From positions 1-35,521 of the forward strand of contig CANQAS010000007.1 of the NCBI GenBank assembly GCA_947589535.1: a DNA stretch of 35,521 nt, written 5' to 3'. Source of the stretch: an uncultured Bacilli bacterium. Its GTDB lineage: Bacteria > Bacillota_I > Bacilli_A > RF39 > UBA660. A program made the translations under genes and the position numbers. Of the stretch, positions 32,589-35,521 are shown piece after piece (position 1 is the stretch's first letter; each line of letters starts with the position of its first letter). The notes below the pieces were generated by a model, which was not told where the DNA came from, made no database searches, and saw only the letters and a list, made by a program, of their open reading frames with translations.

Positions 32589-33563
32589 TTATATATATAG
32601 TAACAAAATTAAAATTGCTGCTAAAAAGTTTTGAAGAAAGTGCATACCTATTGAAACAAAAATATTTTTAGAATCATAATATGCTTTAGCCAAGCATATT
32701 CCTAATGCAGAATACTGAAAAATATATAATAAATCATTAAATGATGTAAATTTATCTATCATATGAAGTATACCAAATAAAAATCCACTTATTATAATAA
32801 ATAATGTTTTGTTTTTTATTACCTTTGATAATGATAGTCTAAATACATTTTCTTCAACAAATGGAGCATATATTGTAGATAGCACAAGGGATGCTAAAGG
32901 TAGTTTTTGAAACATATTATTTAACATTTGTTGATTTGAAGATACTGCTCCTTTATTCAAAAAGACTATTGGAAGTGCTACTATTACCATAATACTTAGC
33001 ATTATAAAATACCTTTTTATGACAAAAGGTAGATATAGTTTAAAATTACTAACGAATAATTTTAAATCGTTTTTTAAACGTCCAAAGTTTAGCATTATTA
33101 CTAGTAAAAATATTACTATGTATATAAAATACGCAGGTATGTGTTTTGAGAAGTTAAATAATGGAAAAACAAACATTATTATAATGAATGAAAAAATAAG
33201 AAAAATAGAGTTTAATACATCACCTTTTTTATTAAAGTATTCATTTTCTGGTAAAACCCTATGTTTTTTATCAGATATACTAGTTAAAAATAATAGACCT
33301 AGTATTCCTGGAATTATTGAATTCATCAATAACCAGATAGAACAAAATAACGTAATCATCTTATTTTTTTTTAATAATAAAACTTCCTTTTTAGACTCTC
33401 TAAAGAGAATAAATGCTACTATTAAATTCATAAATGAAAAAAATAAATTTGCAATAATTTCATCATTTGGTTTGTTTGATAATAAATAATATATAACGTT
33501 TATTACTACGTAAATTATTTCTAATAATGATGCTATTTTAAGTAAGTTTCTTTTATTTTCCAT
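32589..33563 (-). CDS. CPBP family intramembrane metalloprotease
   Basis: APFVEENVFR (EExxxR), SGFLFGILHM, GMHFLQNFL. Confidence 0.88.
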   Translation of the reverse strand: MENKRNLLKIASLLEIIYVVINVIYYLLSNKPNDEIIANLFFSFMNLIVAFILFRESKKEVLLLKKNKMITLFCSIWLLMNSIIPGILGLLFLTSISDKKHRVLPENEYFNKKGDVLNSIFLIFSFIIIMFVFPLFNFSKHIPAYFIYIVIFLLVIMLNFGRLKNDLKLFVSNFKLYLPFVIKRYFIMLSIMVIVALPIVFLNKGAVSSNQQMLNNMFQKLPLASLVLSTIYAPFVEENVFRLSLSKVIKNKTLFIIISGFLFGILHMIDKFTSFNDLLYIFQYSALGICLAKAYYDSKNIFVSIGMHFLQNFLAAILILLLYI

Positions 33564-33926: not shown

Positions 33927-34712
33927 ATGATTATTATAGCAAAATATAAAGTAGAAATAATAGGAATAAACACGAATGATATAAAAATATTATCAGATAA
34001 GGAAAAAGAAGTATTATTTAAAAGATTAAAAAACGGAGATAAAAAAGCCAGAGATGAACTAGCTGAAGGAAATCTAAAATTAGTTTTATCAATTTTAAAG
34101 AGGTATCAAAATAGATGTGATAACATGGATGATTTATTTCAAATTGGTTGCGTTGGTCTAATGAAAGCAATTGATAACTTTGATTTAAATCACGGAGTTA
34201 AGTTTTCTACCTATGCAGTTCCTTTAATTTTGGGAGAAATAAGAAGATATTTAAGAGATAATAGCAACCTTAGAATATCACGTAGTATAAAAGACTTAGC
34301 ATATAAAATATTAAAGGCTAAAGAAGAATACTTTATGATTCATGGAAAAGAAATGACTAATAAAGAAGTAGCCGACAAATTAGGAGTAGAAGAAATAGAT
34401 GTTATAATTGCAATAGATGCTATGAAAGACCCAATAAGTATGTTTGAACCAATTTATGATAATGGTGGAGATACAATTTTTTTAGAGGATCAAATAGAAT
34501 CAAAAAAAGATAAAGCATCAAACTGGGATATGTTAATATCACTTACTTCTGCTGTAAAAAACCTAAAAGAAAAAGAAAGAAAAATCGTTACCGAAAGATT
34601 TTTAGTTGGTAAGACCCAAATGGAAATTGCCGAAGAAATTGGAATATCTCAAGCTCAAGTATCAAGACTTGAAAAAGCTGGTATTGATGAACTTAAAAGA
34701 AAAATAATGTAA
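33927..34712 (+). CDS. sigG: Sporulation sigma factor SigG
   Basis: KVEIIGINTNDIKIL, DDLFQIGCVGLMKAIDNFDLNHGVKFSTYAVPLILGEIRRYLRDN, GKTQMEIAEEIGISQAQVSRLEKAGI. Confidence 0.93.
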   Translation: MIIIAKYKVEIIGINTNDIKILSDKEKEVLFKRLKNGDKKARDELAEGNLKLVLSILKRYQNRCDNMDDLFQIGCVGLMKAIDNFDLNHGVKFSTYAVPLILGEIRRYLRDNSNLRISRSIKDLAYKILKAKEEYFMIHGKEMTNKEVADKLGVEEIDVIIAIDAMKDPISMFEPIYDNGGDTIFLEDQIESKKDKASNWDMLISLTSAVKNLKEKERKIVTERFLVGKTQMEIAEEIGISQAQVSRLEKAGIDELKRKIM

Positions 34713-34859: not shown

Positions 34860-35060
34860 CTAAGAATCTCTTCTTTCACGTTTAGCTGCCTTACGACTGT
34901 TTTTGATAGCTTCTTTCTTAGCGTTTCTTCTTTGAATTCCAGGTTTATCATATTGTTGTTTTTTCTTTACTTCAGAAGGGAGACCGCTTTTAGCTACTCT
35001 TTGTTTAAACTTTTTTAATGCTGCATCAACGTTTCCATTTTTAACTTGAACAGATATCAT
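34860..35060 (-). CDS. rpsU: Ribosomal protein bS21
   Basis: VQVKNGNVDAALKKFKQRVAKSGLPSEVKKKQQYDKPGIQRRNAKKEAIKNSRK; strong purine-rich SD. Confidence 0.95.
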   Translation of the reverse strand: MISVQVKNGNVDAALKKFKQRVAKSGLPSEVKKKQQYDKPGIQRRNAKKEAIKNSRKAAKRERRDS

Positions 35061-35176: not shown

Positions 35177-35326
35177 TTATAAACTCATTATTATCCTAAC
35201 TACAGTACCCACTATCCTACCCAATTGTAAAATGAAATTTGTTAGATAATATATCAAATTACATATTATGGGTAAAGTAAGAATAATTAAAATTATTTTT
35301 GAAATTTTTTTTATTTTAACGGACAC
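35177..35326 (-). CDS. Small hydrophobic basic peptide, putative immunity-like partner (GTG start; not in ORF track)
   Basis: My translation M(V)SVKIKKISKIILIILTLPIICNLIYYLTNFILQLGRIVGTVVRIIMSL*; 16-nt overlap with the upstream peptide gene; GGTGAG 9 nt upstream of GTG. Confidence 0.65.
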   Translation of the reverse strand: MSVKIKKISKIILIILTLPIICNLIYYLTNFILQLGRIVGTVVRIIMSL

Positions 35327-35478
35327 GTATTACCACTCACCATTCTTCTTATGCTACTTCCTAAATATCTGCCTATATCTAAAAAGCTATTAATACCTTT
35401 AATAAGCGAATTTATTAAGGTAGCACTTATTGTTGCACCTGCCTTTATATTTTTTAACTCCGTATTTGATAATTTCAT
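35311..35478 (-). CDS. Putative bacteriocin/pheromone precursor peptide with double-glycine-like leader (not in ORF track)
   Basis: My translation MKLSNTELKNIKAGATISATLINSLIKGINSFLDIGRYLGSSIRRMVSGNTCPLK*; ATG with strong SD AAAGGAGA at good spacing. Confidence 0.75.
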   Translation of the reverse strand: MKLSNTELKNIKAGATISATLINSLIKGINSFLDIGRYLGSSIRRMVSGNTCPLK

Positions 35479-35521
35479 ATTGTCTCCTTTCCTAATTACA
35501 CTTAAATGGGCGTGCTATGCC

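What the first reader, a model, noticed from the sequence alone, without database searches (positions are those of the whole stretch)
35177..35326. Overlapping partner gene sharing the GRxxG[ST]xxR motif: candidate peptide/immunity pair
A second small minus-strand ORF overlaps the precursor by 16 nt and starts at GTG: VSVKIKKISKIILIILTLPIICNLIYYLTNFILQLGRIVGTVVRIIMSL. It is a basic N-terminus plus a membrane span. Its C-terminus FILQLGRIVGTVVRIIMS aligns gap-free with SFLDIGRYLGSSIRRMVS of the precursor (both [LI]GRxx G[ST]xxR). Overlap implies translational coupling. Class II bacteriocins often have a small membrane immunity protein, and a motif shared between toxin and partner would be unusual (mimicry, heteromer, or a two-peptide system).
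Basis: partly seen in the sequence, partly recalled or inferred. Interest (0 to 1): 0.88.

Follow-up and report, generated by a model that had tools for sequence, protein, structure and literature searches.

The report
Immunity-like protein copying its toxin's helix
In a whole family of tiny-genome gut bacteria, a two-peptide toxin-like cassette often carries a small membrane protein, probably for self-protection, whose end copies the toxin's own helix, which hints that cells disarm the toxin by imitating it.

Summary
The 49-aa GTG ORF (35177-35326, -) overlaps the precursor by 16 nt and shares its [LI]GRxxG[ST]xxR motif. It is a real gene. In relatives it is under purifying selection (pN/pS 0.52; 0.96 and 1.45 in shifted frames). 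Its start sits at one fixed place, across the precursor's invariant Cys codon, usually behind a ribosome-binding-like site inside the precursor. The shared motif is the most conserved part of both families. The precursor profile recovers the partner at >=10 bits in 49/75 cases, against 0/6000 shuffles. Relatives show C39 transporter - peptide 1 - peptide 2 - partner - S21. Peptide 2 occurs in about 93% of sampled genomes of this family (RF39/UBA660-type gut Bacilli) and nowhere else sampled. Best reading: a class IIb-like two-peptide bacteriocin whose single-span immunity protein (CbnZ-like in size) mimics peptide 2's GxxxG helix and blocks toxin assembly, as proposed from models for gallocin A's GIP. 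Main argument against: about 46% of cassettes keep both peptides but lack the partner. Activity is untested.

The parts
35177..35326 (-). Partner gene: 49-aa single-span membrane protein, GTG start, candidate immunity protein; no leader
   Evidence: pN/pS 0.52 against 0.96/1.45 in shifted frames; AlphaFold2 predicts one long helix, residues 3-48, mean pLDDT 91.7
35195..35221 (-). Partner copy of the shared motif GRIVGTVVR (residues 36-44)
   Evidence: Both glycines invariant in 44 partners, R44 in 90% or more; G...G 75/75, G...G...R 70/75
35311..35478 (-). Peptide 2 precursor: 55 aa, double-glycine-type (here AG) leader, mature part about 41 aa with GxxxG and one Cys
   Evidence: found in 18/18 genus genomes and 270/291 family genomes
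35344..35373 (-). Peptide 2 copy of the shared motif GRYLGSSIRR (residues 36-45)
   Evidence: G36, G40, R45 and C52 near-invariant in 146 sequences
35330..35344 (-). Ribosome-binding-like stretch inside peptide 2, before the nested GTG (AATGGTGAGTGGTAA)
   Evidence: Duplex energy -7.4 kcal/mol; mean -4.7 in partner loci against -1.75 in loci without, p 8e-10, not corrected for phylogeny
35311..35326 (-). 16-nt overlap; the partner start codon is formed across the invariant Cys codon of peptide 2
   Evidence: Overlaps of 16/13/7 nt in 68/75 partner loci, all the same frame and the same Cys-nested position
35492..35521 (-). 3' end of peptide 1 (GIARPFKCN stop); the rest and the C39 transporter lie beyond the contig end
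   Evidence: Translation; the same kind of tail (DGxxRPFKCR) ends peptide 1 in relatives
34860..35060 (-). rpsU (ribosomal protein S21), common downstream flank of the cassette; not part of the system
   Evidence: Pfam PF01165 9.4e-15; S21 within 1.2 kb downstream in 93/134 loci

Best explanation
The window holds the 3' half of a chromosomal two-peptide, class IIb-like bacteriocin cassette (peptide 1 - peptide 2 - partner) of an RF39/UBA660-type gut bacterium. A C39-peptidase ABC transporter trims the leaders and exports peptides 1 and 2. Outside the cell the two helices pair through GxxxG faces and insert in membranes. The partner is a single-span immunity protein, N-terminus inside, translated by coupling from within peptide 2. 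Its C-terminal helix is a sequence mimic of the C-terminal half of peptide 2, so it can pair with peptide 1 (or cap peptide 2) in the producer's membrane and block the active complex. Shown here: the gene is real, the motif is shared and conserved, the cassette anatomy, the family-wide occurrence. Inferred: toxicity, immunity, topology, and pairing by mimicry.
For: Cassette order transporter - peptide 1 - peptide 2 - partner - S21 in relatives; C39 peptidase domain 2.3e-31 plus ABC domains. GxxxG in 122/123 mature peptide 1, 145/146 peptide 2, 75/75 partners. Motif similarity beyond all controls. Partner under purifying selection. Fixed Cys-nested start and ribosome-binding-like site. Partner C-terminus covaries with peptide 2 C-terminus beyond the transporter tree (partial Mantel r 0.18, p 0.004) but not with peptide 1 (p 0.14). 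Basic N-terminus (mean charge +2.7) before a near-neutral span fits N-in/C-out. Precedents: CbnZ, 42 aa, one span, N-in/C-out, directly after cbnXY, gives 250-fold resistance (PMC6957408); gallocin A GIP, third gene of its operon, necessary and sufficient for immunity, models resemble the toxin peptides and interference was proposed (PMC10100652).
Against: About 46% of cassettes with peptide 2 lack the partner, it is not elsewhere in the 33 such genomes searched, and presence/absence needs at least 8 changes on well-supported branches of the transporter tree: odd for a sole immunity gene. The partner is no more similar to its own peptide 2 than to others' (p 0.67). Near-universal retention of the peptides (about 93% of genomes) is unlike ordinary bacteriocins. 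No activity data exist, and I know of no cultured member.
Confidence: 0.5

Rival explanations
1. The partner is a third, membrane-anchored working component: a GxxxG helix that joins peptides 1 and 2 (for example in a producer-attached killing or signalling complex) rather than blocking them.
For: Same kind of motif in all three proteins; covariation with peptide 2; some loci carry an extra double-glycine peptide between peptide 2 and the partner (L185, L191).
Against: A leader is found in 0/75 partners, so it is not exported by the C39 route; it is dispensable in about 46% of cassettes.
Confidence: 0.12
2. The shared motif is convergence or common ancestry without mimicry: both helices use GRxxG[ST]xxR to sit at the same membrane interface or bind the same receptor, and the partner protects by occupying the receptor.
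For: LagC of lactococcin G is thought to interact with both bacteriocin and receptor (PMC6957408, PMC8538875); partners are not closer to their own peptide 2 than to others'.
Against: The similarity extends past the motif to the C-terminal Cys in many partners, and the partner covaries with peptide 2.
Confidence: 0.15
3. The cassette is not a weapon but a core secreted peptide pair with a housekeeping or developmental role (signal, envelope or sporulation related) in RF39-type bacteria, and the partner tunes it.
For: Present in 269/288 order genomes and 97/102 genera, essentially absent outside the family, mostly beside S21; the partner can be lost without loss of the peptides.
Against: Leader, C39 transporter, GxxxG pairs and an overlapping small membrane gene are the usual class IIb anatomy.
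Confidence: 0.2
4. The partner is a spurious or decaying ORF.
For: Missing or shortened in many relatives (L047, L048, L096).
Against: pN/pS 0.52 in the genus against 0.96 and 1.45 in shifted frames; conserved length, motif, start site and ribosome-binding-like site.
Confidence: 0.03

Closest known systems
GIP, immunity peptide of gallocin A (Streptococcus gallolyticus)
   Same: Third gene of a two-peptide operon; small; immunity proposed to act by imitating and intercalating between the toxin peptides (PMC10100652).
   Different: Mimicry there rests on low-confidence structure models; here it is a sequence match conserved across many genera. Gallocin peptides have two Cys each; here usually one Cys each. 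The partner here is modelled as one long helix, not a hairpin.
CbnZ, immunity protein of carnobacteriocin XY (also BrcI, EnkIaz, AbpIM)
   Same: Very small (42-55 aa), one span for CbnZ, N-in/C-out, CbnZ directly downstream of the two peptide genes (PMC6957408).
   Different: No toxin-like motif is described in the part of that paper read; here the C-terminus copies peptide 2 and the start lies inside peptide 2.
Class IIb (two-peptide) bacteriocins, e.g. lactococcin G
   Same: Two adjacent double-glycine peptides, GxxxG motifs, C39 ABC transporter, adjacent membrane immunity-like gene.
   Different: Near-core and family-restricted; a conserved single C-terminal Cys in each peptide; the window peptide and partner match no Pfam or NCBIfam family above cut-off, other members only weakly.
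CdzC/CdzD-CdzI of Caulobacter
   Same: Two glycine-zipper proteins with a small membrane immunity protein (PMC5380434).
   Different: RTX-type secretion signals and a predicted three-span CdzI; Gram-negative; no motif sharing noted in the passages read.

Membership tests
Class IIb two-peptide bacteriocin | Two adjacent small genes with double-glycine leaders | tested here: met
   Peptide 1 found by pattern before peptide 2 in 123/143 evaluable loci, and by eye in more than half of the remaining 20; its tail is in the window
Class IIb two-peptide bacteriocin | GxxxG or GxxxG-like motif in both mature peptides | tested here: met
   122/123 peptide 1 and 145/146 peptide 2
Class IIb two-peptide bacteriocin | Dedicated ABC transporter with C39 leader peptidase | tested here: met
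   PF03412 2.3e-31 in L155; same-size ORF upstream in nearly all long loci; it lies beyond the contig end in the window genome
Class IIb two-peptide bacteriocin | Adjacent membrane immunity gene | tested here: inconclusive
   Candidate present in about 54% of cassettes (78/144), absent from the rest
Class IIb two-peptide bacteriocin | Both peptides together permeabilise membranes and kill | not testable with these tools
   No activity data
Named families (lactobin A/cerein 7B TIGR03949, Bacteriocin_IIc PF10439) | Score above the curated cut-off | tested here: not met
   The window peptide has no match; other members only weak matches, best E 0.001 and 6e-4 (cut-offs not shown for them)
CbnZ-type small immunity protein | About 40-55 aa, one span, N-in/C-out, protects a sensitive host | tested here: inconclusive
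   Partner size 42-70, median 53; one helix predicted; basic N-terminus; protection not testable
GIP-type immunity by mimicry | Immunity protein resembles the toxin peptides | tested here: met
   Sequence resemblance
GIP-type immunity by mimicry | Immunity protein binds the peptides, blocks their pairing and protects | not testable with these tools
   No complex prediction or assay available

The most novel reading that the evidence does not exclude
A family-wide, near-core two-peptide bacteriocin in which immunity works by sequence mimicry: a membrane protein that carries a copy of one toxin peptide's GxxxG helix and blocks toxin assembly, translated from a start codon nested in the toxin's invariant Cys codon.
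Probability: 0.4. Interest if true: 0.8.

Novelty: new variant of a known kind. Interest (0 to 1): 0.62.

Why it matters
How immunity proteins of two-peptide bacteriocins work is largely unknown (PMC8538875). Here the immunity candidate carries a recognisable copy of the toxin's helix, conserved over many genera, so immunity by mimicry can be tested with point changes in two glycines. It would also give a near-universal secreted peptide system to an order of uncultured, genome-reduced gut bacteria whose ecology is obscure, and a natural comparison between cassettes with and without the partner.

Tried and rejected
Pfam, NCBIfam and PDB sequence searches: nothing useful for either protein. Plasmid and phage records and viral contigs: no relatives, so no sign of a mobile element. 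Fold search with the partner model: no match, as expected of a single helix. A link between partner presence and Gly28 of peptide 1 (Fisher p about 1e-6) vanished when phylogeny was controlled (median p 0.6); a link to Ser38 inside the peptide 2 motif stayed borderline (median p 0.06) and, after scanning about 100 positions, is only a lead. Concerted evolution of the partner with its own peptide 2 (gene conversion) found no support (p 0.67). The partner elsewhere in partner-less genomes: not found.

Full report
What is there. The ORF reported at 35177-35326 (-) is as described: GTG start, 49 codons, 16 nt overlap with the 55-aa precursor at 35311-35478. The window is a whole 35.5-kb contig of a 1.13-Mb draft genome. 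Its last 30 nt encode GIARPFKCN-stop, which relatives show to be the tail of a second double-glycine peptide.

Who carries it. The precursor (peptide 2) is in 18/18 genomes of the genus, 270/291 of the family covering 146/150 genera at a loose cut-off of E <= 1, and by profile at E <= 0.001 in 269/288 of the order. Outside the family, samples of the class and phylum gave only weak matches confined to the leader side. One relative of the same genus is named Candidatus Aphodocola. I place this lineage in RF39/UBA660 from my own knowledge of GTDB, not from a tool result; RF39/UBA660 are described as uncultured, genome-reduced Bacilli (PMC13155120). No relatives were found in plasmid, phage or viral collections.

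Cassette anatomy. In relatives the order is: C39-peptidase ABC transporter (PF03412 2.3e-31); in most other genera a roughly 140-aa one-span accessory protein; peptide 1 (mature about 31 aa, ending FLIGVIDGxxRPxxC); peptide 2 (mature about 41 aa, ending in GRxxG[ST]xxRR...C); the partner; and often S21 (93/134). Peptide 1 and peptide 2 carry GxxxG in 122/123 and 145/146 cases, and usually exactly one cysteine each (111/123 and 135/146).

The partner is a gene. Of 146 distinct cassettes, 75 have the partner at one place and 3 more slightly displaced, that is 78 of 144 with enough sequence. In 68 of the 75 the start codon overlaps the peptide 2 stop by 7, 13 or 16 nt. These are one and the same site, with xTG formed across the invariant Cys codon. 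In partner-bearing loci the stretch before this start pairs with the 16S tail better than in loci without the partner (-4.7 against -1.75 kcal/mol, p 8e-10; phylogeny not controlled). Within the genus pN/pS is 0.52, against 0.96 and 1.45 in the shifted frames.

The shared motif. Invariant positions of 44 partners are Met1 and the two glycines, with the motif Arg at 90% or more. The same glycines and arginines are near-invariant in peptide 2. Profile comparison gives E 3.4e-9. A peptide 2 core HMM recovers partners at >=10 bits in 49/75 cases, but no shuffle or reversal. The partner HMM in turn recovers peptide 2, and does so from whole genomes that lack the partner. In many genera the likeness continues to a C-terminal Cys. 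Partner and peptide 2 C-termini covary beyond the transporter tree (r 0.18, p 0.004), partner and peptide 1 do not. The effect is small and rests on one tree.

How it most likely works. The anatomy is that of a class IIb bacteriocin, and small single-span immunity proteins directly downstream are known (CbnZ, PMC6957408). For gallocin A, immunity by imitation of the toxin peptides was proposed from models (PMC10100652). Here the imitation is visible in sequence. I infer that the partner sits in the producer's membrane with a peptide 2-like helix and blocks peptide 1-peptide 2 pairing. AlphaFold2 models the partner as one helix (residues 3-48, pLDDT 91.7) and peptide 2 as a less certain helix (pLDDT 71.7). 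These models do not test pairing.

What does not fit. The partner is missing from about 46% of cassettes. On the transporter tree its presence needs 18 changes at least, of which well-supported branches force 8, and it is not elsewhere in the 33 partner-less genomes searched. Either another immunity exists, or the peptides are harmless to their makers, or the system is not a weapon. The near-core distribution supports taking the last option seriously.

Verdict. It is a new variant of a known kind (two-peptide bacteriocin with a small immunity protein), with sequence-level mimicry and a near-core distribution as the unusual features.

Noticed in passing
32589-33563 (-): A membrane protein that looks like a CPBP/Abi-type intramembrane protease (by eye only, EE and H motifs), beyond S21 and next to lspA; Abi proteins are known immunity proteins of some plantaricins, so it could be an alternative immunity gene.
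   Followed up: no
L185 and L191, downstream of peptide 2; L113 upstream: Extra double-glycine-leader peptides inside the cassette, in L185 and L191 between peptide 2 and the partner, which suggests occasional three-peptide versions.
   Followed up: partly
L148, L122 and most loci outside the genus, upstream of peptide 1: A roughly 140-aa one-span protein between transporter and peptide 1 with no convincing Pfam match, absent in this genus; perhaps a shortened HlyD-like export adaptor.
   Followed up: partly
peptide 1 and peptide 2 of nearly all relatives: One conserved C-terminal cysteine in each secreted peptide, which would allow a disulfide-linked heterodimer; not described for class IIb bacteriocins as far as I know.
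   Followed up: partly
33927-34712 (+): A sporulation-type sigma factor gene (SigG/SigF-like by eye) stands next to the cassette in a bacterium with a 1.1-Mb genome.
   Followed up: no
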